Below, piece after piece: positions 15,504 to 49,408 of a stretch of 64,000 nucleotides of DNA (position 1 is the first letter of the stretch; each line of letters begins with the position of its first letter). Source of the stretch: Bryum argenteum (Eukaryota > Streptophyta > Bryopsida > Bryales > Bryaceae); contig CM073321.1 in NCBI GenBank assembly GCA_037043015.1, positions 9,432,001 through 9,496,000 of the forward strand, written 5' to 3'. The position numbers and the translations under genes were made by a program. The notes beneath the pieces are model-generated. The model saw only the letters and a list, made by a program, of their open reading frames with translations. It had not been told where the DNA came from and made no database searches.

Positions 15504-15639
15504 GTACGCCATTTCCATACGCATTTGCAATTCCATGCGCAATTGCATTGTTATTTCATCTTGTTCTTTGCACCTCACCTCGCAATTCATTTTACATCAC
15601 TAGAAAAACTAGAATCACAGTGTGCATTTAGGTAGATGC

Positions 15640-16032
15640 CTGTGCATTTAGGTCGCAAAAATAGGTATTTCCAATTTCACGACCTAAACGCACAGCTTTC
15701 AGGTAGCTGCCTCCTAAACGCACACCTTTAGGTAGCTCCCTGCTAAATGCACATCTTTTAGGTAGCTGCCTGCTAAACGCACATATTTTAGGTTGTTGCC
15801 TGCTAAACGCACTGCTTATAGGTAGCACTCTGCTAAACGCACAGCTTTTAGGTAGCTGCCTGCTAAACGCACAGCTTTAGGTAGCTGCCTGCTAAATGCA
15901 CATCTTTTAGGTAGCTGCCTGCTAAATGCACATCTATTAGGTAGCTGCCTGCTAAATGCACATCTTTTAGGTAGCTTCCTGCTAAATGCACAACTTTTAG
16001 GTAGCTGCCTGCTTAGCGTCTGCTTTTAGGTA
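15640..16032. repeat. 30-bp minisatellite array A, left part
   Basis: Tandem ~30-bp units of the form TTTAGGTAGCTGCC-TGCTAAACGCACAGC lie inside the first intron of unit A. The array starts after a divergent pair of half units (GTGCATTTAGGT). It is interrupted at 16,033 by the CACTA insertion and resumes at 17,668. Unit sequence and phase are continuous across the insertion once the element and one GTA are removed. Confidence 0.9.
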
Positions 16033-16299
16033 CACTACAAGGATATATGTGACCTAATTGACAAGACATTGACGTAATTCAGTCAACTGTCCCGTCAATT
16101 AGGAGACCCTGATTCGGTCACTTATTAACAAAAACATGTCGATTCGGCTGTCAAATCGGACAAGAATACACGTCAGCAAGTTCTTACGGTGAGAGGAAAA
16201 AAAAAAAAAAAAGCTTTTTTTCCGCTGCCCGAAATTTTCGGGCAATAGTTACTTTTAAAAAGCTTTTTACTAATCGACAAATTCGGAAGAGCTGATCCA

Positions 16300-16372
16300 T
16301 ACCGGTATCGAACTCGGGACCTCGTGAGTCCAAACTTGTTACCTTACCAACCCGCCCTCCATTCAACTCGAT
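16300..16372 (-). other. tRNA-like segment inside the CACTA element
   Basis: On the - strand this reads GGGCGGGTTGGTAAGGTAAC, then a GGTCCCGAGTTCGATACC block. These resemble a tRNA D-arm/A-box and T-arm/B-box at about the right spacing. No full acceptor stem is evident, so this is a tRNA fossil or SINE head and not a functional tRNA gene. Confidence 0.5.
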
Positions 16373-16415
16373 GATAAGGTGTAATTTGTTTTATTTATAT
16401 AGAATTGTTGTTTCC

Positions 16416-16779
16416 AAACTCAGCAGACTTTGGCGGCCATTTTGACATAGTAAAACAACTTTTTTCAAAAACCTTTAGACTAAGAAAAGCTGGTAAATCA
16501 AGTTAAGTTTCATCTCCAAAATTCTGTTTGTCATTTAAAGCCTCCATTCAAAAGTTATAGACAAAATTCAAAGAGGGTGTTTGAAAATATCAAAAAAGAA
16601 AATTCCTTACTACCCGTCTTTGAATTTTGTCTATAACTTTTGATTGGAGGCTTTAAATGACAAACGAACTTTTGGAGATGAAACTTTACTTGGTTTACTA
16701 GCTTTTTTTATCCCAAAAATTTTTGAAAAAAACTATTCTACTATGACAAAATTCTTGCTAAAGTCTGCTGATTTTGTTT
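16416..16779. repeat. Long fold-back inside the CACTA element
   Basis: Two arms of about 160 bp (16,416-16,573 and 16,617-16,779) are imperfect inverted copies separated by about 43 bp. Paired anchors are AGCAGACTTT/AAAGTCTGCT at the base and CAAAATTCAAAG/CTTTGAATTTTG at the loop end. As RNA this would form a long hairpin, a common source of small RNAs. Confidence 0.85.
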
Positions 16780-17667
16780 AAATCCCTAAATGACCTTCAC
16801 GCCCCCATGCAGCTTCTAGAAGTAGAAAGTGAGAAAATTATGGTTCTTGGGCTGTGAATTACAGGATGACATGTAAATGTTGGGTATTTTTCAAGTTTTC
16901 TTAACCCCAAACCGTCCGTGTGTGTTTTTGGGAGCTTAAAACCTTGAAACTTCGATTTTCTACCTCTATGCATTCCCAAGGCTGTAAACGAAAGTTATTT
17001 CTTTTTTTGAAACTTCCAACCGTAACATCTTGTACTTAAGACTATTTTTAGTTAATGTTCAAAAAATGAACCGTTGGATGTTTACCATTTGCGAGATCAT
17101 AACATCCAAAGTTTGTCTCCCAAGCTTTTTTGGGCATTGTCAAGATTGTTTTGGAAACTTTGGAGGCTGCCCTTGTAAAATTGGTAAACTTTTTGACCAA
17201 GAGCCCTTAGGAACTTAAGTAGTACTTTGGTTATGAACGTAATTCCAATTCTTTTTTGAAAACCTAAATTTAAATTGCCCGATCTTGGCTCGCACATCGA
17301 GAATTGCCCTAGAAGATTCAAAAATTGAAATTCCACTTTGCAAATTTTACCACACCCACTTTGCAGTATAAGGAGCGCCAAGTAAAAATATTACGCAGAA
17401 AATATTACCTTCAACACCTTTATCTAGGTTGCCCGAAATTGCAAAAACCCATTTCGGGCTTCAAAGACGGTTAGGGGTTAAGTGCCCCCGTTTTAGCAAT
17501 TCCACGCTGGTCAAAAATAAAAAAGTTGACAAGAAGTTGACAAGGAGTTGACAAAAACATTTATAATTTCCAAAGTGACAGAAGTTGGGCTGCGAGCCTG
17601 CGACTTCGTCATTTTGGACATTTTTTTGTCAACTATTGGTCATATCGGGCCCTATTTCCTTGTAGTG

Positions 17668-18262
17668 GTAGCTGCGTGCTAAACGTCTACTTTTAGGTAG
17701 CTGCCTGCTAAACGCCTGCTTTTAGGTGCTTGCCAGCTAAACGCACTGCTTTTAGTTTAACGCAAAGATTTTAGGTAGCTGCCTGATAAGATCTGCAGCG
17801 GAGGCCGTTCCTCTTGGTCACTGCCTGCTATAAGCACAGCACTTAGGTCGATGCTTGCTAAACGCACGACATTTAGGTTGTTGCCTGCTAAACGCAGAGC
17901 ACTTAGGTCGTTCCCTGCTGAACGCATAGCACTGAAGTCGATGCCTGCTCAACGCACAGCACTTAGGTCGCAGCCTGCTAAACGCACATATTTTAGGTCG
18001 TTGCCTGCTAAACGCACAGCACTGAGGTCGCAGCCTGCTAAACGCACATATTTTAGGTCGTTGCCCGCTAAACGCACAACACTTAGGTCGTTGCCTGCTA
18101 AACGCACAGCACTGAGGTCGATGCCTGCTCAACGCACAGCACTTAGGTCGTTGCCTACTAAACGCACAGCACTGAGGTCGATGCCTACTCAACGCACAAC
18201 ACTTAGGTCGCAGCCTACTAAAGGTACATATTTTAGGTCGATGCCTGCTAAACGCACAGCAC
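17668..18262. repeat. 30-bp minisatellite array A, right part
   Basis: From about 17,820 the units are almost exactly 30 bp, with TTTAGGTCG (or TTAGGTCG) and CTGCTAAACGCACAGCA as constant parts and a variable middle. Because 30 is divisible by three, each strand shows a long repetitive frame (17,851-18,312 on +; 17,818-18,267 on -). I regard both as artefacts. The array lies just upstream of the first coding exon of unit A. Confidence 0.9.
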
Positions 18263-19220
18263 AGCAATTAAATAGATCTCTTAGCTCGTCACGTTGGCAA
18301 TTACAATTATAGCTTGTTCCGTTGACACTTACAGTTATTGCGCTGAATTGCAGATATGGCTCGCACCACGATGACTGCTACAATTGTTCCCGCTCCCTCA
18401 GAGAGGGACATCCGTTCTGGGAGTCATGATGAACCTCTTGACAATCAGGTTTATATATCCCTCGTACTTTAATGGTTTGTTTTTGAATTCTGAATTTATA
18501 TCCAGTATATGCATTTCGAGCTAATTCTTGTTGCTTCTTTTAAATCACGTTACGTACCGTTTGACTTAAGTAATATTGAAGGATACTTGGAGCCCCCTAG
18601 TTGTCGAGCCCACAGATGTCCTTGCCTCTGCTGTCGCGGACGTCAAACAATACGGCATGTTGTGGACTCCTAAGCCGAATTCGATTGTGTCGTGGTCCTT
18701 ATACCCAAAGGAGAAAGGAATTTTCCACCTATTTCAGCAGTCTGGGACTAATCCTGCCCAACTCCCCATCTGCAACGACACATTCATATACTCTGTCAAC
18801 TATGAGGAGTCACACCTTTTAATCACGCTTCAGGTGACCTACGTTCATGGATTCGTGTTCACTATCGTTTTTCCTGCAAATGAAGTGCGATACTCGCACG
18901 ACACTATTAAAGCTTACATGGTCGGGAAGACGGAGGCGGGGCTCGTAGACCACATCGTCACATGCATACTGAATGTTAGCTCTCCGAAGAAATTCGTTCA
19001 GGCCTACCAGCAGTATTGCATGAATATCAGAAATGCCTTGAACGATTACGAGAGAAGCAAGGCAAAAGGCAAAGCTCCCGCACGGAAGGCACTCGTGCTT
19101 GCTTCTGAGGAGGGTACCGGGTCAAAAACAGCGCGGTCGGGTATGGCCTCCATTGAGGCAACTCCTTCGCCGTCGCGGAAACGCCGCAACTTGAAACCCT
19201 CGCGAGTTAAGCAGGGCAAG

Positions 19221-20574
19221 TGTCACATCCCTTTCCAAACGAATCCCAAACACCGTGGTAAGCCAAGAGGACCCCGGGAGTGACGCCCCGGGCTTGGCAA
19301 GAGACAAGGTGAGGTGACTATGGAGAGTCCCGAGCAGATAGTACGCAATCGCGTCGTTCTCGGAACGAACTTGGTAGTGTGCCTTACATGGTTGCAAACC
19401 TTGTTCAAGCACGCACCCATAGGTCCAAAGAACGCGCGATTTGGAGTTGTGAGTCATGAGATATGACTCTCCAAAGTTGGAGCGCGTTCCGGGACACTCC
19501 GGGACTCGGGAGTGTTGCCTTTCGGGACTCAATGTGTCGACCTTCGTGGAGGGCGGCATGTTGCATGTTGCTGAAAAGCTAATGACAAGGGCTTTCTAGG
19601 ATGCTAAGGCTCATGTTGAGCAAAGCAATAGTCTAGGAGATATGGCTCCTCAAAGTGGTCGAGACTTCGGGACTCGGGAATGTTGCCTCCCGGGACACCA
19701 AATGTTCAGAGGGGCATATCTCCCTTGGGACAGATCCGATTAAGGTAAGTGGGTAGTCTATCGATATTGATTGAAAGAGTAGATGTCGAAATGGGCTCGC
19801 ACATCCCATTTGGATACCTGAGCTAGGCGCTAGCCCGAGGAGAAGTTACGGCCCGTTTTTGAGGCTAAGGCAAAAACGTGTGGTCTTCCAGAAAAAAAGT
19901 GTGTCACGGAAGGCCCCTCAACACAAGAGGGGGGGCCTACCAAAGACTCCAGAGAGTACTATGAGGAGGGGTGGTCTCCCTCCTCACTTGCACATGGTGC
20001 CATGAGGAGTCGGGGTGGCTCCAAGGGGTGAGGCTTGGGATGGGTCCTCACTCCCGCACCTTGTGGAAAATGGAGAGAGTTTTGGAGCATCTCTAAACAT
20101 GGAGAGGGACACTTCCGCAACATTGGGTTGGGAAGAGTTCCCGCTCCAAACTAGTCCCCGGAAAACCTAGTGCCGGATTCCGGGACGGTTTCCGGCAAAG
20201 TCCTGAATGGAGTGAGAAACAAGAGTGGAAGGGGACTAGTGGGAAGTTGGACAATGCATAAGGGCGGTTAGCTTCGGGGGTGATTAGTAGCATCCTTGGG
20301 AGCTTGGACATTTGTGGAAGGCCGCCCCGTGCCACCAAGTGGCATGCCCATGTGTTGGTGGGAGTTACGGGTAATGAGTATCCGGTAATGAGTTACGGAG
20401 TCAAGGTGGGTTGGACACCTTGACTTAGAATGGTGCTAACATTGTGTGTGTGGGCATATGCAAGTGTTAGCAAAGTCGTGGCGGGTTGCTACCAACTAAG
20501 TGAGCTGGGATTCCACTACCAAGTAAGGCTCACTAAGAAAAAAAAAATGAGTTGGAGTAATTAGGGTCGCGACA
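19221..20574 (+). mobile_element. Solo-LTR-like insertion in gene A (~1354 bp)
   Basis: The segment starts TGTCACATCC and ends TCGCGACA, the TG...CA style of plant Ty3/gypsy LTRs. It interrupts the reading frame of gene A: unit B has continuous coding across the equivalent place. The first ~420 bp are repeated at 54,380-54,799. No internal retrotransposon genes are present, so a solo LTR is the simplest reading. A clear 5-bp target duplication is not visible (GCAAG before, CTAAT after), so one end may be shifted or decayed. Confidence 0.7.
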
Positions 20575-21439
20575 CTAATGAGTAGGTGGAGACTACATTT
20601 TTTGATTTCTCGGGTGAGCCGAATTTCCCCACGCTAGCAAAGGAGGCTGTCGATCCGCTCATTAATCTTGGTCTGGGTCCGCAAGAGGCGGGTGAACCTT
20701 CACAACCGCGAGTGAAGATTGAGTCGAACATTCCCGTTCCACTCTCGAAAGATGCCAAGCGTGCACAACGTCAAAAGGAAAAGGAAGAGAGAAGGGTCGC
20801 CAAACAAGCTGAAGGAGAAGCCGCAAATGCAAGACGGGAGGCGCAAAGACTTGCAGATCTTGCTAGGTTGGAGGAGCAACGGCGAGTAGATCAACTCAAA
20901 GTCGAATCCAAGTTGTCGAGTTTGGAGACTTCAGATTCCAGATTTCTGTGCGACTTGAGCGATTTGAGGATCTTGATGACTCAGATAGCACAAGTGGCTC
21001 TTCCCCTAGCCTCCTACAACCCCGTCAATCAGCCTACTTTGGCTATCTGCGGGCCTTCGACTTCCACCACCCAAACTCCACCTGAACGCTCAGCACCTCC
21101 AATTCCTTCAGTTCCTACCTGCATTCTTCCTGCTCCGTCTACCTCAGTTCCCATCGCTGTTATTGAGGAGATTATTTGTGGGGGATCTCCTTCGGAAGTT
21201 GATATCGCCAATCAAGGAGCATCAGACCATCGAAACGACAATGTGGACTACAAAGCCAGCGACCACGGACAAGCACATGAAGATGTTCTTGACGGTGCTT
21301 CCTCACTCTTGGTGACCCCTGAAGATGCAGAGACAACAATTCAGGGTGTCCCAATTTCCCTTCACCCTGCGAACGACATACCTGACTCAGTACCTGCGAC
21401 CAATCCCACGGTGAGCTTCTTATCAAATGTAGCAAAACT

Positions 21440-21462
21440 TATTTAGCTCGGGTCGACCTAAA
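21440..21462. repeat. Dyad motif copy in an intron of gene A
   Basis: TTTAGCTCGGGTCGACCTAAA lacks perfect symmetry but keeps the TTTAG..TCG and its mirrored end. It lies in the intron that begins at 21,411. Similar single copies lie in introns of gene B and downstream of genes C and D. Confidence 0.6.
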
Positions 21463-23788
21463 TTTCTGTTTGACGAGTTGATGAGCATCTGCTCATATTA
21501 TTGCTCTGCTTGTATGATGTTTAATTTTGTAATAATCTAAAAGCCGGCGATCCTTGTTTTACACGAGTCCGGTATTGAAGACGGCGAGTAGTTCTTGCGA
21601 GTTAGTCTTCGAATTATTGGATGGTGTGCCACGTTTGTAGATAGTACCATGTAGTGACATCATTCAATAAAATGAAGACTTTTATTTTATCAGTTGCGTA
21701 TGCACTGCGTCCGCGTCATTCTCCCTCATTCTTGGCGCTAAATATCGTCATTTCTTTATCAGGACCCGCCTCTGAGTACCTTATTCCGTCCGCTTGCTAC
21801 CAGAACCCCCACCGACCACCTTTTGCTGTGCGTCGATGTAGTGGTCCGGTCTTCAATCACTCCGAGCAGTCATTTGCATGCTTCAGCATTTCACAAGGTA
21901 ACACTCTTGTTTTAATATCGTCCGCAATTGTCACTTGTTGTGCTGCAGGCTAGATTGCCTAAATCTTCAAGCAGGACGTTCCCTACATCCCTCGGTCAAC
22001 CCTCACCGCCTGTGCCATCACTCAATAGACACCGGCCCATGCCCAAGTGGTTGAACGTGGTGTTGGAGTTGAACGGCGTTCTTTGTTCCACTACCCCTAT
22101 GTCTCAGGTCCATCTCAGTACCTTATTTTTCCCGATCCCATACACCCTCCTGTTCTTTCCTCCACTATCCCCACCGTAGTTGCTGACACGATAGTATACT
22201 GTCGTCTTGGATTGACCCCCTTTCTTAATGTGTTAGATCGTTTCTGCCACATCCACGTGTGAAGTACCCTTCAACCTGAAGTTGTCGACGGTCTCTGCAC
22301 CTTCCTTTTCTCTGAAACTGTTGCCGTTCCGCAAACTATATTGGCCTTAAACTCGTGCGATGGACTCTTGCTGAAGAATTACACGAAGGCCATGTACCAT
22401 GGCACGACTAATCCTATCTTACTGAAATATCCACGTTGACGTCTCTTGACTAGAAGGGATGCTAATTTCAACGCCCAGAACTTTATTATGGTCGATAGCA
22501 ATCATGCGGCTCGTATGGCTGTTCCCCACTGAACACTCTCTTTCCCGATCCTTGGGTCCATTCACATCTGGGTCCACCCTCAGACTCTTATCCACTGAAA
22601 TTAATCCACAAGTTTTGTTTTGCCGTACATTTGAGAGGTCCGCAGAACTTTCGTCAAGTTATGACTAGTAGACCCTCTCACAATGACTTGTCCAAGGACT
22701 CCGAGTTGTACGGCATTATGTCTCGGAATTTGCCCTATGTGTGGAACCAGCTCCTACTAAATGGAAAAACTATGTTGTGATTACTTTTATTTACGGTATT
22801 GGTTTAAATTTGTTTTTTTTGCTTTTTGCTTCACTTAGTGTTCTAATGCCTCGTCAGATTATCACCATTTCGTAGTCATGGATTTGCAAATTGCCACTTT
22901 CGATTGTTCCGGTGAGTCTACCATTAGAATGCCTTTTAAAGACTTAGTGTTTTTTTTTATGATATTGAGGTTTTCAACAATCGACAACAAAGTGCTTCCC
23001 TGGATGATATTCCCCCAATGGGTCCCTCTACGATGTCAGATCCCTCTTTCAATAGTGAGGGGTCGAGGACACTATCGGAATTGCAACGAGGGCTGTACAT
23101 ATATTCTGCCCGAGATGACGCATCTGCTGTGGATTACACCAAAGACGTCATGGATGATGATGATGATGATGGTGTCGTTGATAGTTATGTCAATGTACCA
23201 AATCGAATTGTGGCGGCTTCACACGATAAAATCCCGGCTACGACAACAGGCACCGTGGCACGGATTACTGACACCCTAATTCATTCTACGGACCTAGGTG
23301 TACCTTGCGATTTAGCTCCCGTGAAGCTAAATGATCCTTTGCAAACAACTATCGCCCATGTGGGACTCTCCTTTGAAGGAGACTATCCCCGAGTTGTTGG
23401 AAGCGTGACAGAAATGAGGCTTTTGGTGATGCACGTCCACGTAGTACTATATAGATTATACTGGGCTTTACTTTAGGAGGTCTACAATTACACCAATAAT
23501 ATGTTTTCTGGATTTTCCAATCAATAAATTTTTCTGCTTTAGTAAATTTGTTTTAAGCATTGTTTGTATTTTGAATGAATTCTTCTTTTTGTTTCAGTAT
23601 AGTTTGTATATTCATTACTGCGTCTTTTTTATTTTGAGAATATTTTGTTATATTGATAAAACGTGCTTTTTAGTTTGAGAATACTTCTCTCTACATTGAT
23701 AAACTTTAATTATCTGGTAATGCATTTGGTTTAGTGCAGTCTAAGTGCGATTGTATTACTCTAATTCGTATTTACCATTTTGTGTATA

Positions 23789-23815
23789 TATTCCCATTAT
23801 AATGAATTACGTGTT
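23789..23815 (+). promoter_or_regulatory. Conserved 27-bp 3' block, unit A
   Basis: The block begins TATTCCCATTATAATG and ends TTACGTGTT. The same block, with at most a few changes, lies downstream of units B, C and D in the same orientation relative to the gene. It marks where unit-specific 3' sequence ends and spacer-type sequence begins. It could be a 3'-end processing signal or an element terminus. Confidence 0.75.
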
Positions 23816-24634
23816 GTATTTGCCGATTCTACAGCCTTGTATCATAGCCGTAGCAGTGTTTCAACAATCCTCAACATAGAAGAATGCAAAATTTTCGAAA
23901 GTAATCGCAATCTTTTTGCACCAAGTTGAAACTCAATACAAGTCGAGTGTTGTGTCTCACTTCTTTCAAGAAATGTAAGCAAGTATTAAAAGTGCACGCC
24001 ACAAGTTAAAATATTCCTAATTGATGAAACACTTATAAATGTTTTTTAAGTTCGCTCGCTCAGTATCTTGATCTTTTTGACAGTGCTATAATATAATGAA
24101 TGTGATTATAGAATATTCGATTGAATTCTATAACAAATCGACGAGCCTTGCTAAATTCCTTGCAGCTTGACATGCGTATTGAAACTCGGTCATAATCGAT
24201 TGATCCACAAAGTCTTTGCAAATAACATCATTTCTTGCTTGCATACATCTGAAGAATGTTCCAATCCAAATCATGAAATCGAGCATTGCAATATTTTTCC
24301 ATGTTGTTGCTTTGTAGAATAACAAAATCTTTGGTAACTATTTTAATAAAAATAATTCAGTCTCAATAACACATATGGCTAATTCTTAGAAACTTAACAG
24401 GCCCAAAAACATTCTAAACAGTGGCAAATTAAACAATATAGGTATCCAGCAGGACATTAGTTACTGACAACATTCTGTACATTGCGTAATTCTAATCGCT
24501 GAACGAAAATTGAATGACAAGCTTCTTCTTTAGCACAACAGTGTATATGAATAGCTGTTCAAAAACAATAATATACACTTCAATAAATACAAATTAAAGG
24601 AGTAAATATAAAAAACATTTGCAAATGATTCTCA
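23816..24634 (-). repeat. AT-rich spacer segment between convergent units A and B
   Basis: This is the inverse of about 11,640-12,330. It starts with the sequence complementary to the CGACAAATAC region (12,330) and ends with that matching CATTTGCAAATG (11,645). It contains the - strand conserved ORF fragment at 24,128-24,325. Confidence 0.75.
24128..24325 (-). pseudogene. Conserved ORF fragment in spacer, copy 3
   Basis: This 65-codon frame contains TTWKNIAMLDFMIWIGTF, then CMQARNDVICKDF and QSIMTEFQYACQAARNLARLVD. It aligns with the two + strand frames near 12 kb across the whole stretch without internal stops. It has no start context or neighbouring exon that I can identify. I do not recognise the family. 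Confidence 0.5.
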
Positions 24635-24661
24635 AACACGTAATTTGTTATAATGGGAATA
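24635..24661 (-). promoter_or_regulatory. Conserved 27-bp 3' block, unit B
   Basis: On the - strand it reads TATTCCCATTATAACA... and ends TTACGTGTT, with the same orientation relative to its gene as in the other three units. It lies about 280 bp after the last coding frame of unit B. A GAGGTCTACAATTACACCAAT segment further upstream is shared with the 3' region of unit A. Confidence 0.75.
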
Positions 24662-24942
24662 TATACTAATAATTAAGGAGACTTCCATTTAGATCGATTC
24701 TGACCTAATTAGTTGCCAAATCACAAGATTTTTACTGATAATGATGAATTTTCTCAATATAAAAGACAATCATAGAAAGGAATCTATAATGCAAGCTAAG
24801 AAATATGCTCCCCTAAGAGAAAATTTTATTGATATGAAAGCACAAATACAATTTATTGGTGTAATTGTAGACCTCAAATAGATAGGCATTATATTATCTA
24901 CCAATTACGACGTGGCGGAGAAGAGTTATCACCACAAGAATC

Positions 24943-25665
24943 TTACTTAGTGAATATAGGGTCCTCACTACGTGTGTATTTAGAAAAGGCAGGTTCGTCC
25001 ATCTCCATAAGCGCACCACTTCTACGACGCTTCGATGCGCGTCTCCGTAATAGACGGTGAGTCTCAGACGAAAATCGTGTTGGATGAACGCGAGTGTTTG
25101 CCCCAAGAGATAAGGAGCAATGAGCCACAATATTTGGCAAGGAACTATTTAGCTCGAATCGAGCTAAATAGGCACGGCCATCAACGACGGGGTTGCGTAA
25201 TACAGCTTCACCTTGGGGTGACGCTGCAATCAAGGTCATCACACCGATTCGATCATGGCAGGTTGCAATACTTGGTTGAGTCTGAATAGGGGGACTGTTT
25301 ACTACACCGTCATCGTCATTATCCATGTCCTCCTTCGTGTAATCTACAGCCGATGCGTCGTCTGGAGCACAGAAGATCAACCGTCCCCGCATTCGTTCCG
25401 AGAAAGTTCTCGAGTCCTCACTTGTAATGGAAGCATCGGACACCGTTGAAGGACCAATTACAAGATTTTCTTGCAAAGCACATGATGGACGTGGAGAGAG
25501 CAGACGTCCAACGGCAGCAAGTTGGTTTATAACCACACCCATTTTAGAAAGTGAGTCCATGGCACTAAGTGCAATGAAAAAGGTACACAATATAACAACG
25601 CATTTAATCATGTATGTCGAGGGGGGATTCACCAATCGATCTACAATAAATCTCCATCTAAGCAA
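24943..25665 (-). CDS. Unit B: C-terminal acidic exon
   Basis: The frame runs from about 25,599 in the likely exon to the stop at 24,943. It contains ARxDDASAVDYTK-like sequence (here APDDASAVDYTKEDMD), a run of acidic residues, and a basic stretch RRRASKRRRSG near the end that could be a nuclear localisation signal. Unit A has a homologous exon at about 23,018-23,476 with its own acidic run. One dyad motif (25,145-25,165) is embedded in it and reads ARFELN. Whether it is spliced to the phosphatase-like exon or belongs to a separate transcript is not settled, because both copies have a stop at the same place at the end of the previous exon. Confidence 0.5.
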   Translation of the reverse strand: MLRWRFIVDRLVNPPSTYMIKCVVILCTFFIALSAMDSLSKMGVVINQLAAVGRLLSPRPSCALQENLVIGPSTVSDASITSEDSRTFSERMRGRLIFCAPDDASAVDYTKEDMDNDDDGVVNSPPIQTQPSIATCHDRIGVMTLIAASPQGEAVLRNPVVDGRAYLARFELNSSLPNIVAHCSLSLGANTRVHPTRFSSETHRLLRRRASKRRRSGALMEMDEPAFSKYTRSEDPIFTK

Positions 25666-25722
25666 CCAATAAACATAAGGTTTCTAGGGTAAAAATCAGA
25701 ATAATACCACTGATAAAAGTAT

Positions 25723-38204: not shown

Positions 38205-38290
38205 ACTTGATTTGGAGCAAAACCCAAGTGATTTCATCCAAAACGGACCTCGGATGAAGAAGATATGGCTATTCAAAATTTTGCCTTCTA
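38205..38290 (+). repeat. Dispersed repeat, copy 2 (paired with 6170-6262)
   Basis: It runs from AAACTAGACTTGATTTGGA through AACGGACCTCGG to ATATGGCTATTCAAAA. It aligns along its length with 6170-6262. It lies ~200 bp before the CT-rich leader of unit C. Confidence 0.65.
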
Positions 38291-38479
38291 TCCAAAATGT
38301 CGTTTTTTGACATTCACCGCATTTAGGGGTTAACATTCTAGTGCCCAATATGAGATTATTTTGTTGATTTGAGTTTGGGTTATCCATTTTCCTTGCGAAT
38401 CCGGTTTTTTTTATTACAATTATGTAATTCCTATTTTTAGAAATATTTCGGATTTCTCGGTGACTTAACTTCAAATGAT

Positions 38480-39010: not shown

Positions 39011-40181
39011 GTGAGTTCGATCAATAACCTCAATTTCAATGTAAAACAAGAATTTGTTGTTTATTGGTCATATGTTGCCTTCATCGTGGTGCATTCCTGA
39101 TGGCAAAGTGGATTTCGTCGAAGTTGGTGTGCACAGAAATCGAGGCAAATATACTATTTTACTTGTGCACAGTTCCCAAGAATGAATCTCACTAATCACT
39201 GTCCACGAATATCGAGGCAGTTTCTTATAAGAAATGTATGAAATATGCACAAGCTCATTTAGCTCGACTCGAGCTAAATGGGCATCCACATCCAAATGCT
39301 TCGAGTTCACAAAGTCTTGTACTAGAATGGTTTATTGGAAGACCATTTAGCTCGAATCGAGCTAAATGGGCGTCCACATCAAAATGCTTCGACTTCACGA
39401 AGTCCTGTATTTGATGATTCATAGGAAGACCATTTAGCTCGACTCGAGCTAAATGGTCATCCAACTAAGTTTTATTGTTTATTTTGGGAGACGAATGTTT
39501 GAGGACCATTTAGCTCGAGTCGATACATGATGCACGTGTATAACAGTTTTATTTCGGCACGCTCACGATGCACGTGTATAATGAAGACCATTTAGCTCGA
39601 CTCGAGCTAAATGGGCTTCAAGATAACTGTCCATCACTCACTCACGATGCACGTGTATAATGGAGACCATTGAGCTCGAATCGAGCTAAATGGTCATCCA
39701 GCTTTAATTGCGTCGCGGTGAGTGGTGAACAGTTATCTTGAAGACCATTTAGCTCGAGTCGAGCTAAATGGTCATTAATATATTTGTTCATCACGCTTAC
39801 CTCGAAGCTGTTGAAGCTGGATGACCATTTAGCTGGACTCGAGCTAAATGGTCTTCCTTTTCGACATGCTTCGGGGTTAGCATGATGTATTAAGATCTTC
39901 AAGACCATTTAGCTCGAGTCCAGCTAAATGGTCATCAATATAACCGTCCATCATTCACCTCGACGCTGTTGAAGTTGGATGACCATTTAGCTTGACTCGA
40001 GCTAAATGGTCCTCATTATTTACGTGCATTGGGGTGAGTAATGGTCAGTTAACTTGAAGCCCATTTAGCTCGAGTCCAGCTAAATGGTCATACATTCTCC
40101 ATGGTCATAGACATTTCTGACTGCAGGTATATTAACTTACCAGTGATTTCTCATGATTGTGTGTTTATTGCTGGCATTCAG
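39011..40181 (+). other. First intron of unit C, holding a palindrome array
   Basis: The donor is GTGAGTTCG at 39,011 and the acceptor is GGCATTCAG at 40,181, seven bases before the start codon. The length is 1171 bp. The last 0.9 kb is the dyad array. Confidence 0.7.
39257..40085. repeat. Palindrome array of unit C (11 dyads, ~79-bp period)
   Basis: Starts are at 39,257, 39,345, 39,432, 39,508 (truncated), 39,590, 39,669, 39,747, 39,827, 39,907, 39,985 and 40,063. From 39,590 on the spacing is 78-80 bp. The dyad is the same as in unit B and is usually framed by GACCATTTAG and TAAATGGTC, extending the symmetry to about 31 bp. Spacers share words such as CGCTGTTGAAG and GATGCACGTGTATAA, showing amplification of a larger unit. 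Confidence 0.95.
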
Positions 40182-40187
40182 GTAATC

Positions 40188-43100
40188 ATGGAATTGAGTG
40201 AGTCCGATGGCGACGGTGATTTTCAGCGTCTTTTTTCTGAGGTATTGGACTTACTTATTTTGCTTAATATATTTTGTTTTGAGTTTATCCATTCGTACTA
40301 ATTCGTCTGTGTATGTGGTCATTTAGGACTTGGATGGTCCTTCCGAGCTTGTTCTTCCGGACCATTTAAAAGATTGCCCCGGACTGCCCAGAAGTAAATG
40401 GGTTACGAAATCTGTGACACTTCTCAACGATAGTGGGGACGTTGTTGGTGAAGGCATTTGTCAGACTCTTGACGCTGAAAGAATGTTAGAGAGTAATGAC
40501 GAGCCCGTATGTGAAGATCAGGTAGTTGTGCAGATCGTGAAGTGCTTGAATTTGGACTTCGTACCTGCTGAGACCATTTATGGAACTAGGAGCTGGAAGT
40601 TTAGCCATGCTATCCATGAGGGTTGGTCACTACTTGATCATTTACGAGTTGATCAGTTCAACGTCGCTGTTAATGCCCGCGATCATCCAAAGAAGAAGGG
40701 GGTGCGATCGTATGAGTTGGGACAACGAAACCAACGATTCTTAAGGACCAAGAGAGAAGAGGAGCTCTTGACGTTAAATTCAGTCAACTTGGTTGCAAGC
40801 AAGATTTGCTGCAACAAGAACTATTGCCAAGCTTTCCCTCGAGAGAATATTATGGGTCTCCGAAAGCAGATGTACGAGGCGTCGGGTTTTAAATTTAAGT
40901 CACATTTCAAGATAGATGTTCATATTCGTTTTCATCAGGCACCGGACGGCACAATGATGGTAACGACTGAAGGCATTGACGTTTGCGCGCGTGCATGGCA
41001 ACATATAAGTGGAGTTCTGATTTCAACATACTACAGGAGGAAGGCAGAAGTTGCAGCTGGACTACGTGCTCGCCACCATGGCAATGTTGGTCAGAAGAAA
41101 CCACGATTGCATGTAAAGCAAGCTGTAGCTACTCTGAAGACATGCATTGACAATGCTGCTGATCATATGCCTCACCGGACGAAGATGTTGACATCTGGTG
41201 AGAAGGTTGTCTCTCGGCCCTTGCCGTCGTCCTTCAGATGGAAGGATGCCATACCGGGGATCAATGACATCAATGAGAGGTTGGGCTTGAAGTCCATTTT
41301 TTAGAGCACACTTAGCAGGATTAGGAGGTCAAAATTTTCTGAGTATTCAAAGAAGGCGCCGGGAGACAACTTTGCTCGTTGCTCAACCTGTGACAGGATG
41401 GAGACAATGATCAAGTCTATGGTACCTGATTCATGTGAAGAGAATATGTGGATCAAGAAGCTAGAGGAGCATTTGCATCATCAAGAAACGCATCGTGAGT
41501 ATCATTATACAAATCGTTCTCTTTCTATTCAGAGGCCGAGAGATGTCCTTTGTATAATACATGACAAAATGGATCATGCAAAGATTGTGTGCCTTATATT
41601 TTCACATAAAACAAAGATCCTCAATTCCGTTAAAATGGCATTATGCCGCTAAAATGGCACACCTCAACTTTCTGAACTACGGTCCAAAAACCATGTGATA
41701 TAACAGAATTTGAAGGTGATAGTATAGAAAATGAGTGACAAAGTATGTAAAGGAGTGATATTATTAAAAAAATGTGATATTACAGAATGCACCATTCCAT
41801 GTGAGCACATGTGTAAGATTTGGTGTGACAAAATGGCACATGGCATAGTGCCATTTTAACGGAATTGAGGTTAAAGGCAAATGATGCATTGATGAAGCTT
41901 CCAATTGCTGTGACTGGCATGATTGCACACGGGCATAGCGATGTCCGGTATGCTCATTATGGGCTCGATATTTATCCAAGTGATTGCAATCACACTGTTG
42001 GATCAATATTAAAGCTTTTACGAGATCTAGAAGGTGTTCCGATCTCGTATCCGAAATCATTATTCGCAAATTCGGGGTCGCTGCCTCTATTTGAAGTTGT
42101 ATTGTTTGGAAAAGAAGGGTGTTTAAACTCTCTTCTTCCTGAAAGTGAAGTTCCTGGGGTGGCGGAGCCTCTACCTCCTGTCCAGCATGTGCAACTGGAC
42201 AACGCAGCTTCTGACAACAAGAATAGATTCATGTTTTGCTTTTGGTCTCTTCTGGTACACATGGGTGTGTTCCATGAAGTATATGTCAATTTCTTGTTAG
42301 TTGGACATACCCACAAAGATATTGACGCCCTCTTCGGACGTTGGAGCATGAATCTCAAAGAGAATGACTTTCTCACACTTCCTCAGTTGATGAAGTCATT
42401 TACGACGCAGAGTCTTTGCCAGTCATTCCTCATTTGATAGAGGAAATACCTGACTTCAAGGCTTATATTGAAGACTACATTGGTTCTAGAGATGAAATTC
42501 TAGTTGGGCATTCGGAGGGTCAACAATTCAAGTTTTACAAGCATGACAATGGATGGCCCATGATGCAGTATAAGATGTTATGCACAGACAATGAGTGGTT
42601 ACCTTCTACTAATGGAGGTATAAAATTGTAGAAAGAGGACCGAAGTACAAGAAAACTATTGTTACCTACAGGTGACATGAAACCTTTGGCGCCCATTTCC
42701 ATGAAGAACCGTGATGACATTGTAAAAGGCATTGGAGGGTTTATTAAGATGTGGGAGACTTCATGTGCGGAGGACATATTTGGAGAATTTGGTCGGCGTC
42801 ATGAACTTGTTATTCGCTATTGGCGAGCTGTGAAGCTTGCATTGGTTGAGCCTATAGAAGTGTCTTCATTTTTGAAGAACGGGTGTTGGCCTTTAACTCG
42901 AGTACCTGCGACACGAGAATTCTTAAATACTGGCGAATTGCGAGAGGAATATGGGCGTGATCCGCACTTTATCGGACGGTTGTGTAATAGACCAAGGGAG
43001 TCGTTTTGGGTTGGTCGAGATATTTTTGCTGGATATTTTGTAGCTCTACGTCCAGCCGATAGGGATGCTCGTCCTTTCTGGATTGCTAGAGCTTTAACTG

Positions 43101-43390
43101 ATTTTGATGTTGATCACAACTATCCAAGCTGTATTCAAATGCAATATTTTCAACCTGCATCAAAAAATAGTGTTGTTCAGAAAACCTATGCTGGTTGGGA
43201 TACAATGAAGACTTTCAAATGGAAAGTTGAAGACACTCACATTCCGGAATGGCTTCAAGCTGATGCTATTTTTACGTCATGGAAATCAAGTGCAAAACTT
43301 GGCTCTCGGCGTCCGATTATTTCATTATCGGAGCGTCAAATCAACATCATCAAATAAAGTATTGAGCGGTTCAACGGTGGAGAGGAGTAG
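40188..43390 (+). pseudogene. Unit C: DUF7869-type transposase-like gene, decayed
   Basis: Exon 1 (40,188-40,241) encodes an acidic 18-residue start. After an 85-bp intron (40,242-40,326) a long exon follows. Restored for length only, the product would be about 950 residues. Visible parts are a Cys-rich patch (CCNKNYCQAF), then IIHDKMDHAK, VQLDNAASDNKNRF and VGHTHKDIDALFGRWS, the acidic residues expected of a DDE/RNase H-like core in this family. Lesions are TAG at 41,302, a MITE at 41,617-41,872, a 1-base deletion near 42,402, TAG at 42,629 (Trp in D) and TAA at 43,355 (Gln in D). No genuine TIRs for this gene's own element were identified. Confidence 0.85.
41617..41872. mobile_element. MITE, 256 bp, inserted in gene C
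   Basis: The terminal inverted repeats are 29 bp with one mismatch (outer end CCTCAATTCCGTTAAAATGG). The flanks share AAAG (41,613-41,616 and 41,873-41,876), a possible 4-bp duplication. Gene D is uninterrupted at the same codon (HKTK|NDALMK), which confirms the insertion. It encodes nothing. The superfamily is uncertain, because the target duplication does not fit TA, TWA or TTAA rules cleanly. Confidence 0.92.
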
Positions 43391-43423
43391 CCTGACATCT
43401 TTAGTTTATTTGGGCATGCCAAT

Positions 43424-43446
43424 TTAGCTCTAGTCGAGCTAAATGA
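43424..43446. repeat. Dyad motif downstream of gene C
   Basis: TTTAGCTCTAGTCGAGCTAAA, one change from the consensus dyad, lies about 35 bp after the ancestral stop codon. A related copy lies at about 52,371-52,391 after gene D (TTAGCTCGCGTCGACCTAAA). Confidence 0.7.
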
Positions 43447-43804
43447 CCTCAGTGCAATTTGAGCTATCAATTTATCGTTTTTGCCAATAGATTCATCTTA
43501 GAAATGCACGTAGAAGTCCTTCCTCTTATCTTTGCTAGCAGTTGATATCCGTAGTTAAGTATTGGTACAGTTATTATGCCTTAAAGTCAACAATTCAAGT
43601 GTTTGTAATTTTTCGGAGTTAATTGTCGATTTCCAGTTTAATTGAGTTTATCATTTTATTGTGCTCTTTTTGCAAATTGCTATCAGGATGCATTTTGCGT
43701 TTGCTACTTTCATCATCTTTTGTATTCAGTTTAGCTCTACATCACGCGCGTTTAGTTCGATACATATGTTGGAATTTAGGTCGATTGGTTTTTGAGAGTT
43801 TGAG

Positions 43805-43831
43805 TATTCCCATTATAACGAATTATGTGTT
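43805..43831 (+). promoter_or_regulatory. Conserved 27-bp 3' block, unit C
   Basis: It begins TATTCCCATTATAACG and ends TTATGTGTT. It is immediately followed by spacer sequence matching 11,630 in inverse orientation. Confidence 0.75.
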
Positions 43832-46800
43832 TTCATAACATTATTATGTTAACATATATCTTGCCGATATTGTAATCAATAATTATTGTTGTTTATAATC
43901 AATTTTTAGTCTATTGATATTTAACGATAAAACTTATTCTAAACATCTATCAATCAGTATCAGTTTTTTTTTTACATAATTTTGTGTATTTTTAGGCGTA
44001 TGCGACTTCAGTACATTCAACACATGAGCCAAATTAAGCAGCTATACTACCAATATATAACTCACGTACACTGATACACAAATTTAAATAGCAGATGTTC
44101 ACAATCTAATTCTCTTACAATGAAACTTTTGTTGTTGGCTTTTTTAATCATTCACACTTCATCTTGCAATGCAATAGTATGAGATGTTCAATCGCGCGGG
44201 CATAAAAGTCTTTCCGCTCAATACAAGCGAAGCAAAAAACAAGTTATTAATGTCACATTTCACTTCAATGTTCGACATCTATCTTGTTTTTATTGTAAAC
44301 ATCAATGATCCGTCGATGATAAACATATACCATAACTCTTATTATAATGAAACAGCTGTGGACTTGTCTTATCGAGCAATACGTTCAGTTATATCGCAGA
44401 CCAAACTTTAACATTATCTTGTAATTGATTATATAAAGTAATCATTAACTTAAATATTATATCGTAAGCACACAAATTTATTTAACATTCTGTTATGAAG
44501 TCATTCCTAAATATAAAATAATATAAGATTATGGTTTTATTCTATTACAGAACACCCTTTAAATAATTCTGAAGTTTAAAGAAGTTGGATATGAAACAAT
44601 TTAAAAATAAGTAACCTAATATACACATGATGCAAATGAATATGTTTGAGTAATTTCTAGACGATAAAAATGAATAATTTCAGACATTGTTCTTTATAAA
44701 TTTTATTTGTGATACCTTTTTAGTTTGACTCTAAAATTATAAATAAATTTTACTTAATGTTGTTTTTCTATAAATTATATGCTTATAAAGTATAGGTAAA
44801 TATAAATCTACAATGTAGTGTGCCGTTGTTAATGCATAATGATATATTGTGGAGTACTGTAAGATAGTCTTACAGAGAACCTTATTCATTTGAAAGTATA
44901 GTTTCAATAGATGTTTTCTATCAAAAGCGTAAGTAATCTTTACAATCATTAATGTCTTAGCAATCAGCGCCTGCGATCATGTGATTTCAAGTTCTTCGAA
45001 AGGCAACAACCATAACATTGAGCATGAAGAGCACTTTGGAGTCACTTTCTCAAATTAACAAATAGATGACAATTGAGCTTGAGTACAGTCAATTGTACTG
45101 TGTAAATAAATTTAAATCTAATTGTGTTTAACTTACAAATTTGTATATAATATTATTATTATGATTTATATATTGACTAATATTAAAATGTCAAATGAAG
45201 TATGACTTTTGGAATTTGTAGTATGAACGTCTTTTAAAAAAAGAAATGTCCAATTTTAAGAAGAATACTTAAAATAAATATAAATTATATTATTTTGCAT
45301 GGAATATAACCTAATATGGCGTAAAGAGTTTCATATATTTATGACTCATCACAACGAAAACAATATATGATGAAATAAATTCGATTCAATTAAGCTTACG
45401 CTTAAGCTTAAGAATGTTCAGTACCAAAATTTCATTTCTTCAATTGGTTTTCATAAATCTTATTCATATGATTTCACAAGGTCAAATTATTTTATACATA
45501 AGAATAGTATGGGTTCAATTTTCTACATATAGATTTTCTTAAATATTCAAGTGTATATTTAATTATTTAATCCTAAAGCATGAAAGTTGAAATCTTATAT
45601 AACTTCGTAAAATAACAAATACTAATGATAAGAATTATATGGATTTCTAATTTAAGAGTGACGCACAAGATTAATTTTTGTTTCTAGTATAATTGAGAAT
45701 TTGAATTCAATTTGTGTTGAGGTACCACTGGTTTTTGTTACAATACAACTTAGAGGTCTTGGGTGATACTTTTGCTATTTGTCATTGTATGCTTTTATTT
45801 GTAAGCATGTAACTGCTTTATCTACTTATTCTGACGTTGTGAAGGTGATGACAGTTTGCATTGCAAAATAGAGTTTGCAAATGTCGACCTTTCACAATAA
45901 CTAACATTAAGAATAATCGAATGGGGTTATACTAAGTATATAAAGAAGTTGTTCAGAGAGGATTCCATGCAAACAACAGACTCGAGTTCAAATATGATCT
46001 AGAAAAAGCAGAACGAGTTATATTAGTGAATGTATCTCTGCTTTTGTCACAAATTTTAATCAGAATGTTTTCGTTTGTATGGTTACTCAAGTTGCCGCAA
46101 AGAAGTTTACCGTTGCTGCTGCGGTATATTCGACGCAGATAGTTAAGTATATATTAACATAATATTATCTCGTAAAATAATTCGATCGTATAATACGAAT
46201 GAGATGTATATCTAACTTAATATTAAATAAATATTTATAAAATGTTGATGAAAATTGTTTATTTCAAATTATGTTTACGTATTTTGTTTATTCTTTATCT
46301 ATACAAATTTGATTCGTCATTTTATATAAGAATATTATAAAATTATATGATTTAAGAATAATATTAAGTTCTCAAGATATATCATAATTTCTTCTTAAAT
46401 TTATTTAAATTAAAATACTTTGTAATTTATTTCTTTTTTTCGTTTGATTTTAGTGATATTATAGAAAAATTTATGCTCAGTTTCATAATTTATAAATGGT
46501 TTATGTATTTGAAATATACATTTAATTACAACTATTATCTTATGAGAATAAATAAGTTTTTTATAAATTTAGCATGTAAAATGTTACATCTATGTAAAGT
46601 TTATATCAATTGATACGTAATAAGCTAAATTATATATTGTAACATACAATATTAGATAAATTCACTTTCCAAAAAAATTATTGTTTATTTCAAAGTTTTA
46701 TAAATGATTAAGTTTTCATAAAATTATAAGAATAAATAAGTTTTTTCATAAATCTAACATGTAAAATGTTAAATCTATATAAAATTTATATCAATTCATA

Positions 46801-47350
46801 CGTCATAAGCTAAAATCTATATTAAAAAACAAAATAGTAGATGAGATCACTTACCAACAATATTATTGTTTATTTTAAAGTTATATAAATGATTTAGTTT
46901 TGATAAAATTATAAGAATAAATATTTAAACCCTATTTATAGCCTTAATAATCGTAATACGCTAATAACATTAGATATAATATCTGTTAGATCGTTTTTGG
47001 TCTGAAAATATTATTAAAATAGTTGATTTTTGATTATAGATATTAGTTGCATTATATTTAGAGTAGAGTATACCAAGATTAGTATTTTGTAAATAAGTAA
47101 GACTTATAACAGAATTATTTAGTAAATTTATTATAAAATTGAAAAATAGCGAAAAATATAGATAGACGCAAGGATAATATAATTACTTTTAGTTCCTGAA
47201 ATAAGTAATTATCAGTTTATGGAGTTTTTTGAAACACAAAGATAATTCTAGGAAATTTTCATTAATACGTCAATCATGTTTTACACGCAGTGATTATAAG
47301 TTTTAAATAAAGAATCAAAAAAATAGAAAATTTCATAATCACACGTAAAT
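43832..47350 (-). repeat. AT-rich spacer, right arm of the large inverted repeat
   Basis: This is the inverse of 7207-11,630, ending at the start of the unit D leader just as the left arm ends at the truncated leader at 7206. It lacks the SINE and about 0.7 kb present in the left arm. The empty SINE site is at about 45,490. No gene is visible. Confidence 0.8.
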
Positions 47351-47356
47351 TAGCTC

Positions 47357-47938
47357 AATGAACCAATGGGGCACCCTAGGTTGTGGAACCCCATACATCT
47401 GGGGCAGCGGGCACCCCCGGGGCAGCCCGGGCAGCGGCTCGACGCCGCCACGTCGCGCAGGGCAGGCCGGGCAGCGGCCTCACGTCGCCTTCAAGGCGGA
47501 GAATAGCCCGCCGCCCGTTGGCGCCAGCTTCTTGCCCAGTTTGAACGTCTTCTCGCCGGCTCCCAACCAGCTCGCATCTCCAGCCAGGGGCCCCAGTCGG
47601 CTCGCACCGCCAGCCAGCCCCCAGCCAGCTCGCTCCGCCAGCGTTCTGCTCCGCCAGCGTTTCGCTCCGCCAGCTTTCCGCTTGGTGTTCTTCTCCCTGG
47701 CGCAGCTTCCCGCTCCGGCCAACCTCATGCCGTTCCTCCCCCCCTACTCCCGTGTCGCCATCCTCCTCCACGCCGTTCTGCTCCTATTTCGTGTGGTTGT
47801 ATTTCGAACTTCTTCCCGCATTAGCTACAACAGCTCACATTTGCCATTCAGTTGTTGTTACTTCAATTTGTTTCTCAGCTTGTTTGCTCGACTACGGTAG
47901 GGTTTGTTCGTGATCTCCGAGGCAATCATTCGCATCAA
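47357..47938 (+). promoter_or_regulatory. GC/CT-rich leader exon of unit D
   Basis: It begins CTCAATGAACCAATGGGGCACC and is rich in GGGCAGC, then CCAGCTCGC repeats, then CT-rich sequence, TAGGGTTTGTTCG and a donor ATCAA|GTACGC at 47,938/47,939. The end is homologous to the unit A leader and the beginning to the truncated leader at 6958-7206. The 180-codon + frame and the - frames are composition artefacts. Confidence 0.6.
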
Positions 47939-48029
47939 GTACGCCATTACCATACGTATTTGCATTTGCATTTGAACTTGCATTTTGGGACCGCTCCGCG
48001 TGATTTGTTTTTCGTAACTGAGTTAACAA

Positions 48030-48960
48030 TGTGCATTTAGGTCGATGCCTGTGCATTTAGGTCGCAAAAACAGGAATTTCCAATTTCACGAGCTAAACGC
48101 ACAGAATTTAGGTCGCTGCCTCCTAAACGCACGATGTAGGTCGCTGCGTGCTAAAAACACAGTTTTTAGGTCGCTGCCTGCTTAATGCACTGTGTAGGTT
48201 GCTGCGTGCTAAACGCACAGTTTTTAGGTCACTACCTGCTAAACGCACAGTTTGTACTTCGCTGCCAACTAAACGTAGTGGTTAGGTCGCTGCGTGCTAA
48301 ACGCATAATGTCTAAGTCGCTGCCTGCTAAACGCACAGTGTTCAGGCCGCTCCGAACCAAATGCAGTATTCGGGTTGCTGCCCTTAAACGGTCAGTGTTC
48401 AGGTCACTGCCTGCTAAACAATCAGTGTTTAGGTCGCTGCCTTCAAAACGCACAGTATGTAGGTCGTTGCCTGCTAAATGCTCAGTGCTTAGGACTCTCC
48501 CAACTGAACGCAATGTTAGGACGCTGTCTGCTAAACGCACAGTGTTGAGGTCGCTGTCTGCTAAACGCACTGTGTTTAGGTCAGTGCCTGCCAAACGCAC
48601 AGCATTCAGGTCGCTCCCAACTTAACGCAGTGGTAAGGCTGCCTGCTAAACGGTCAGTGTTCATGTCGCAGCCTGCTAAACGGTCAGTGTTCATGTCGTA
48701 GCCTGCTAAACACAGTGTGTAGGTTGCTGCCTGTTAAATGCACAGCATTTAGGTCGCTCCTTGCTAAACGCACAGTGTTGAAGTCGCTCCCAACTGAACG
48801 CAGTGGTTACGTCGCTGTCTCGTAAACGCACAGTGTTTAGATCGCTCCCAGCTAGACGCAGTGGTTAGGTCGCTGCCTGCTAAACGCATAGTGTTTAGAT
48901 TGCTGCCTGCTTAACGCGGAGTGTTTAGGTCAATGCCTCCTAAACGCACAGCACTTAGTA
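48030..48960. repeat. 30-bp minisatellite array D
   Basis: Degenerate tandem units resemble TTTAGGTCGCTGCC-TGCTAAACGCACAGTG, with a period near 30 bp and many 26-29-bp variants. The array opens with the same double GTGCATTTAGGTCG start as array A and lies in the first intron (47,939-49,392). Reading frames in it, such as 48,185-48,625, are artefacts. Confidence 0.9.
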
Positions 48961-48995
48961 CGTTACGAAATGAAGCTAGACGTTCAGCAGTCCGC

Positions 48996-49250
48996 TTGGG
49001 AAATTAGCTCGAGTCCTGCTAAGTCTACAGCAGTGTCATAATCTTCGTAGGGATTTAGCTCGACTCGAGCTAAATGCACGACAGCTTCTTTACCATACGC
49101 ACGGATTTAGCTGGGGTCGAGCTATGTCCACAGTTAGTTTAGGAATTTTCTCTGGGGGTTTAGATCGTTCCTATAACATCCATGTTATATTGATGTCAAA
49201 TGATTAATTATAAACTAGTATAATAGGTAGGAAATTAGGTCCAGTCGAGC
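48996..49250. repeat. Dyad motifs at the 3' end of array D
   Basis: After the minisatellite come four dyad-type copies: near 49,003 (degenerate right arm), a perfect one at 49,051-49,073, a variant at 49,104 (TTTAGCTGGGGTCGAGCTA) and one near 49,230 (TTAGGTCCAGTCGAGCTAAA). The last combines a GGTC-type left end with a dyad-type right arm, bridging the two repeat types. Confidence 0.8.
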
Positions 49251-49408
49251 TAAATACTACTTCCATATTGTTTAGGAATGACTGAGCTTGTTCTGAGGTT
49301 TCATGTTTGCGTCTTCTTTTCCACTAATGGTTATTAGAATCTTTTGTAATGTTGTGTAGCATTTCACAGAGCTTATAATCAGTTTTAATCAGGGTGTGAC
49401 CGCTCTAC

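What the first reader, a model, noticed from the sequence alone, without database searches (positions are those of the whole stretch)
15504..49392. Two unrelated gene families share one non-coding chassis
Seen: units A/B (FCP1-like) and C/D (DUF7869-type) have the same order of leader, AGGGTTTG, splice donor, ~1.2-1.45 kb first intron filled by an array, start codon just after the acceptor, and a 27-bp 3' block. The leaders of A and D are homologous although the proteins are not. Inference: either these are cargo and transposase genes of one giant multi-gene mobile element, or one regulatory cassette has been copied onto different genes.
Basis: partly seen in the sequence, partly recalled or inferred. 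Interest (0 to 1): 0.88.

Follow-up and report, generated by a model that had tools for sequence, protein, structure and literature searches.

The report
Giant moss transposon with histone-tail mimic
The repeated gene units are the two halves of a roughly 20-kilobase jumping gene in a plant (probably a moss) genome, and one of its two proteins begins with a copy of the tip of histone H3, which hints at a way for a mobile element to engage the cell's chromatin machinery.

Summary
The "27-bp 3' block" is a terminal inverted repeat: 1,004 genomic copies, pairing outward at 18-25 kb with 4-bp target duplications (6 of 7 same-family pairs perfect). Units B and C are the two divergent genes of one 19.2-kb element (24635-43831). 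A and D are halves of two other elements of a sister family; BC sits in the AT-rich centre of D's element, and an uninterrupted centre exists elsewhere. All eight complete copies read (seven chosen for paired ends, plus BC) carry array introns on both sides.

The DUF7869 protein has a DDE-transposase-like fold. The FCP1-like partner is conserved in Physcomitrium. Arrays and family-II ends share a half-site, TTTAG[CGA]TCGA.

Unexpectedly, the partner's first coding exon encodes the histone H3 tip: MARTKQTATIV (family I) or MPRTKQTARIV (family II), 94 copies against 12 H3-like starts. Between families RTKQTA differs only synonymously. Function is inferred, not shown. The element resembles Sola-type giant transposons; the searches made showed no transposon-encoded histone mimic. 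Most top-scoring DUF7869 copies in the genome are not this element.

The parts
24635..43831 (.). Complete family-II element BC, 19,197 bp: partner gene (-) and DUF7869 gene (+) between inverted repeats; flanking 4 bp CTCA / TTCA (one mismatch)
24635..24661 (-). Left terminal inverted repeat of BC (one mismatch to the pattern)
43805..43831 (+). Right terminal inverted repeat of BC
25723..28239 (-). B: open frame with the last partner exon; degenerate NIF/FCP1 domain at about 25906-26451 (motif ELDGV)
29016..31180 (-). B: middle partner exons; the frame is broken in this copy
31353..31385 (-). B: exon 1 start, MPRTKQTARIV, followed by an in-frame stop in this copy
31501..32368 (-). B: palindromic half-site array in the predicted first intron
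32540..33180 (-). B: G+C-rich leader
33300..38480 (.). A+T-rich centre of BC
38600..39010 (+). C: leader with AGGGTTTG
39256..40091 (+). C: palindromic half-site array in the predicted first intron
40188..43357 (+). C: DUF7869 (transposase) gene, start MELSESDGD; broken by a stop and by a 0.25-kb insertion
6964..23815 (+). Element A: reversed, truncated family-I element (partner half, centre, stub of the DUF7869-side leader)
15684..16013 (+). A: first part of the 30-bp array
17667..18262 (+). A: second part of the 30-bp array
18356..18448 (+). A: exon 1, MARTTMTATIVPAPSERDIRSGSHDEPLDNQ (a decayed H3-like start)
18570..22780 (+). A: later partner exons, degenerate; motif ELNGV near 22070
23789..23815 (+). 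Terminal inverted repeat of A
23816..24634 (.). Piece of the A+T-rich centre of D's element, left between the inserted elements A and BC (94% over 814 bp to the centre of another family-I copy)
43832..52911 (+). Right part of D's family-I element: rest of centre, leader, array, DUF7869 gene, TIR
47370..47940 (+). D: leader with AGGGTTTG
48092..48951 (+). D: 30-bp array in the predicted first intron
49409..52320 (+). D: DUF7869 (transposase) gene, start MATSASDDD; domain in frame 50255-51826; stops elsewhere
52885..52911 (+). Terminal inverted repeat of D's element

Best explanation
This is a giant TIR (cut-and-paste type) DNA transposon of 18-23 kb, in at least two sister families (I: units A and D; II: units B and C). 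It carries two divergently transcribed genes whose 3' ends lie at 27-bp terminal inverted repeats, and it makes 4-bp target duplications [shown from sequence]. The DUF7869 gene encodes the transposase, an RNase H-like DD(D/E) enzyme [fold shown by prediction; catalysis inferred]. The FCP1-like gene encodes a second, element-specific protein [pairing shown; role inferred]. I propose that an element protein, most likely this partner, binds the TTTAGnTCGA half-site that builds the arrays in both first introns and recurs near the ends of family II, so that binding links control of both promoters to assembly of the ends, as recalled for TnpA of En/Spm [inferred]. The partner's first exon gives it an N-terminus that copies the tip of histone H3 (ARTKQTA or PRTKQTA; an initiator Met before Ala or Pro is normally removed, recalled). 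Bound at the arrays it would display many H3K4-like tails and engage or saturate H3K4 readers, writers or erasers, keeping the element expressible or guiding its transposase [inferred]. In this reading the array introns are landing pads, not cargo.
Confidence: 0.8

Rival explanations
1. Same transposon, but the H3-like exon has no histone-related function: a scrap of a histone H3 gene, or chance, that became exon 1 and was copied since, or a peptide kept for another reason (for example as a nuclear signal).
For: Family-I codons differ from a common host H3 start at 3 of 24 bases, all synonymous; weak constraint within families; relatives show no such exon in their gene models.
Against: The six codons RTKQTA are identical in protein across two families whose exon 1 cannot be aligned beyond IV, with six synonymous differences; 26 of 33 and 32 of 43 copies found by anchors outside the tail keep the exact peptide.
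Confidence: 0.35
2. Same transposon, but the arrays are plain satellite growth inside introns, without a binding protein.
For: Array length and unit vary between copies; introns tolerate repeats.
Against: Two different array types share one half-site, which also occurs as lone palindromes in other introns and 53-59 bp from the partner-side end in all five family-II copies; both introns of an element carry the same array type in 8 of 8 copies.
Confidence: 0.25
3. Host genes onto which one regulatory cassette was copied; no mobile element.
For: Shared leader stretches and arrays next to unrelated coding sequences.
Against: Terminal repeats, target duplications, an uninterrupted site and about 1,004 TIR copies.
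Confidence: 0.02
4. A virus-derived giant element of the Polinton/Maverick or Teratorn sort.
For: Large size and more than one protein.
Against: 4-bp duplication and 27-bp TIR; no viral family among the Pfam matches of the frames scanned (not every frame was scanned); no DUF7869 relative confirmed in viral contigs.
Confidence: 0.02

Closest known systems
Sola superfamily, Sola1 group, e.g. 21.5-kb Sola1-1_Ec32 of Ectocarpus (PMC12477816, section 5 read; Sola1 listed for Physcomitrella in PMC9033089 Table 1, passage seen; the founding paper is not held)
   Same: Size near 20 kb, accessory gene of about 1,100-1,500 aa on the strand opposite the transposase, presence in moss; 4-bp target duplication and DDD transposase (both recalled for Sola).
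   Different: The accessory gene there is a ParB-like protein with a DNA methyltransferase; here it has an H3-like start and a degenerate FCP1 domain, and no ParB or methyltransferase family was matched. Kinship of DUF7869 with Sola transposases could not be tested.
En/Spm (CACTA) with TnpA (recalled)
   Same: Two products, repeated protein-binding motifs near the ends and near the promoter, control and transposition by one DNA-binding protein.
   Different: Ends here start AACACG, not CACTA; 4-bp not 3-bp duplication; the arrays lie in first introns; two divergent genes instead of one spliced unit.
FCP1/SCP (NIF) phosphatases
   Same: Pfam NIF domain in the last partner exon.
   Different: DxDx[TV] is not intact in any version seen: ELDGV (family II), ELNGV (family I), DLNGI (6 P. 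patens proteins).
Histone H3 mimics (influenza NS1, SNAG-domain repressors; recalled)
   Same: A short H3-tail-like peptide at a protein end; PRTKQTAR recalls the SNAG start PRSFLVRK.
   Different: Encoded by a transposon, as a separate first exon with seven exact H3 residues in family I; binding untested.

Membership tests
TIR (cut-and-paste) DNA transposon | Terminal inverted repeats at both ends | tested here: met
   27-bp repeats at both ends of 8 complete copies
TIR (cut-and-paste) DNA transposon | Target duplication of fixed length | tested here: met
   4 bp, 6 of 7 same-family pairs perfect, 1 with one mismatch; window BC one mismatch
TIR (cut-and-paste) DNA transposon | Uninterrupted (empty) site | tested here: met
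   BC flanks joined align to the centre of another copy, 96% over 236 bp
TIR (cut-and-paste) DNA transposon | DD(E/D) RNase H-like transposase | tested here: inconclusive
Sola1 | 4-bp target duplication (recalled) | tested here: met
Sola1 | Transposase related to Sola1 references | not testable with these tools
   No Sola reference sequence at hand; founding paper not held
Sola1 | DDD triad (recalled) | tested here: inconclusive
   D309/D312, D434, D474/D476 in the model; geometry not measured
En/Spm (CACTA) | CACTA ends (recalled) | tested here: not met
   Ends read AACACGTAATTC
En/Spm (CACTA) | 3-bp target duplication (recalled) | tested here: not met
   4 bp
FCP1/SCP (NIF) phosphatase | Pfam NIF above cut-off | tested here: met
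   23.3 vs 21.8 bits in copy II_1777k; window B below it at 18.6
FCP1/SCP (NIF) phosphatase | Catalytic DxDx[TV] (recalled) | tested here: not met
   ELDGV, ELNGV, DLNGI
Histone H3 mimic | H3-tail sequence at an exposed protein end | tested here: met
   94 copies of M[AP]RTKQTAxIV, reversed control 0; translation and Met removal not shown
Histone H3 mimic | Binding by H3 readers or enzymes | not testable with these tools
   Needs peptide binding or ChIP
Polinton/Maverick | 6-bp target duplication, DNA polymerase B, capsid genes (recalled) | tested here: not met
   4-bp duplication; gene content only partly scanned

The most novel reading that the evidence does not exclude
Probability: 0.35. 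Interest if true: 0.95.

Novelty: new variant of a known kind. Interest (0 to 1): 0.84.

Why it matters
It turns a puzzle (two unrelated genes on one chassis) into a defined mobile element with ends, target duplications and a transposase-like fold for DUF7869, a Pfam family of unknown function that no paper of the held library names. If the H3-like start is functional, it would be a histone mimic encoded by a transposon, a way for a selfish element to steer host chromatin that peptides and ChIP can test directly. It also gives a candidate binding code (TTTAGnTCGA) that predicts where an element protein should sit.

Tried and rejected
Rejected: A and D as partners of one element (A faces the wrong way, and the 819 bp between A and BC belong to the centre of D's element). 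An inversion of A within D's element (bases beside A, GTAT, and beside D, AGAG, do not fit one duplication; read). AGGGTTTG as a constant part. L033/L034 as one element (31.6 kb apart, unlike ends, no duplication).

Led nowhere: fold of the partner (mean pLDDT 41; not used). Partner profile against PDB sequences (0 hits). Partner in Pfam and NCBIfam: only NIF in the last exon passed its cut-off; sub-threshold rows were N-glycanase_N and Tugs. DUF7869 in viral contigs (51 stretches matched a pattern, none confirmed). Pattern for P. patens-type starts MEDIKAS in this genome (10 hits against 4 in the control: no clear family). The 14.7 kb left of A's broken end (L059 plus the window's left edge) shows no DUF7869 half and no TIR. 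The register of relatives' first Met against our exon 2 is ambiguous (offset 0 or 4), so a displaced start codon is not claimed. A ParB-like (GQH) or methyltransferase-like reading of the partner was motif guessing without a family match and is not claimed.

Papers: DUF7869, 0 papers; moss + giant transposon, 4 listed, none on this by title; histone mimic + transposon, 28 papers, 20 listed, none by title or abstract start a transposon-encoded mimic; moss + sex chromosome + transposable element + terminal inverted repeat, 8 listed; giant transposons + plant, 11 listed; one search listed 12 of 683, none on this by title. Not checked: Repbase, preprints, subscription journals.
Full report
Setting. 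The window is C1:9432001-9496000 of a 258.8-Mb genome in 25 contigs. The named protein relatives (Ceratodon purpureus 55% and Physcomitrium patens 50% for DUF7869; P. patens for the partner) point to a moss; this is inference.

The 27-bp block is an inverted terminal repeat. TATTCCCATTATAAYGAATTAYGTGTT occurs 492+512 times with up to 2 mismatches; the reversed control gives 0+0. Among the 100 listed places (all exact, all on C1 below 22.55 Mb) 31 neighbouring pairs are under 40 kb apart: 18 face outward, 6 inward, 7 the same way; 12 of the outward pairs are 18-25 kb apart. In the 30 loci fetched the sequence outside the block differs from place to place. For the eight outward pairs whose two ends I held, the 4 bp beside the two blocks are identical in six (AAAA, CAAG, AGAA, CAAG, TTCT, GTCG), differ by one base in one (GTAG/CTAG), and do not match in one pair whose ends are of different kinds and lie 31.6 kb apart. 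In each of the seven like pairs one end is of the partner-gene kind and the other of the DUF7869 kind.

Element anatomy. I fetched those seven elements whole; they were chosen because their ends paired. With window BC they measure 18.1-22.7 kb. Each has, from the partner-side TIR: the partner gene read towards that TIR, an array, a G+C-rich leader, an A+T-rich centre (mostly 20-30% G+C; less so in copy II_507k), a second leader, a second array, and the DUF7869 gene read towards the other TIR. Family I (A/D type) has the 30-bp array, family II (B/C type) the palindromic array. Between families DUF7869-gene DNA is 69-75% identical and partner exons 64-69%; apart from the nested flanks nothing else aligned at the threshold used (E 1e-20, 250 bp).

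The window is a nest. BC is 24635-43831. Its flanks, joined without one 4-bp copy, align without a break to the centre of a family-I copy (96% over 236 bp), and the 819 bp between A and BC align to the same centre (94% over 814 bp). So BC and the reversed, truncated element A both lie inside the centre of D's element. A stops at about 6964; no DUF7869 half and no TIR were found in the 14.7 kb examined to the left.

Partner. The last exon carries a NIF/FCP1 domain (E 5.8e-5 in copy II_1777k). The middle exons matched no family. A profile finds 314 relatives (120 listed), led by P. patens proteins, four of them 1489-1551 aa long and named FCP1 homology domain-containing, so middle exons and NIF belong together in another moss. 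The phosphatase motif is degenerate wherever seen. Nine contig lengths recur in the two protein lists (113 and 100 distinct lengths), which suggests but does not show that the two genes share contigs elsewhere.

Half-sites. TTTAG[CGA]TCGA occurs 46-69 times per family-II element and 11-18 times per complete family-I element; 20 Markov simulations each give a mean of at most 0.25 (largest single value 2), and 17.4 kb of window outside the elements has none. The sites are in the intron arrays, as lone palindromes elsewhere in the partner gene, and in all five family-II copies 53-59 bp from the partner-side end.

Histone-like first exon. Directly after the acceptor of the array intron the partner starts MARTKQTATIV (family I: 31k, 5966k; MARTKMTATIV in 3346k; MARTTMTATIV in window A) or MPRTKQTARIV (family II: 1777k, 3425k, window B; MPRTKETARIV in 4734k; MPRTKQSARIV in 507k). 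Histone H3 starts MARTKQTARK. Patterns anchored outside the seven codons found 33 and 43 copies; 26 and 32 of them read ARTKQTA and PRTKQTA. A back-translated pattern finds 94 M[AP]RTKQTAxIV (64 on C1, binomial p 8e-28) against 12 M[AP]RTKQTARK; 110 M[AP]RTKQTA in all, so 4 are neither. Between the families' common sequences the RTKQTA codons differ at six bases without an amino-acid change, while exon 1 beyond IV cannot be aligned (by eye). Within families constraint is weak (13 of 33 possible synonymous vs 19 of 93 possible nonsynonymous changes seen, p 0.038). Of 31 tails on C1 below 22.55 Mb, 13 have an exact same-strand TIR within 14 kb downstream, 12 of them at 7.3-8.0 kb (0.95 expected); 18 have none. 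Relatives in P. patens and elsewhere begin with Met at or within about four residues of our exon 2, so the exon may be a gain of this lineage, or may be missing from their gene models; this is open.

Mechanism. Shown from sequence: ends, duplications, uninterrupted site, gene pairing, arrays, half-site enrichment, H3-like exon. Supported by prediction: transposase fold. Inferred: splicing, that an element protein binds the half-sites, that this couples promoter control and end pairing, and that the H3-like N-terminus engages H3K4 machinery.

Compared with the known. The 21.5-kb Sola1-1_Ec32 of Ectocarpus has a 1104-aa accessory gene opposite the transposase, ParB-like plus DNA methyltransferase (PMC12477816, section 5 read); Sola1 is listed for Physcomitrella (PMC9033089, passages). 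Ours fits in size, layout and (recalled) duplication length, but transposase kinship could not be tested and the accessory protein differs. In the giant-transposon review PMC6431247 (passages seen) the words moss and histone do not occur. I saw no report of a transposon-encoded histone mimic in the listings.

Noticed in passing
G000 contig C1 (44.1 of 258.8 Mb): C1 holds 64 of 94 H3-like starts with 17% of the genome. It may be a sex chromosome; untested.
   Followed up: partly
window 41617-41872: About 0.26-kb MITE-like insertion with about 30-bp inverted ends inside the DUF7869 exon of C.
   Followed up: partly
window about 16033-17666: Insertion that splits A's array has ends CACTACAAGGA / TCCTTGTAGTG with GTA on both sides: looks like a small CACTA element (read).
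   Followed up: no
window about 19225-20575 and 54378-54798: Insertion inside A's partner gene looks like a solo LTR (TGTCAC...GCGACA); a stretch right of D matches part of it at 95% in reverse.
   Followed up: no
window 55583-58977 (-): Open frames of 377, 154 and 505 aa; two scanned, neither passed a Pfam cut-off (DUF7379 at E 0.073).
   Followed up: no
window 61793-64000: 149-bp tandem repeat array running to the window's end.
   Followed up: no
window 5821-6259: Isolated stretch about 69-71% identical to the DUF7869-side leader region of family-II elements.
   Followed up: no
copies I_31k and I_5966k, near 14.1-14.5 kb of each: TIR-like blocks (2-3 mismatches) inside the centre, perhaps small nested relatives.
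   Followed up: no
G000 contigs C2-C11: Many high-scoring DUF7869 copies with open frames up to about 1,100 aa, apparently other subfamilies whose ends and partners were not examined.
   Followed up: no
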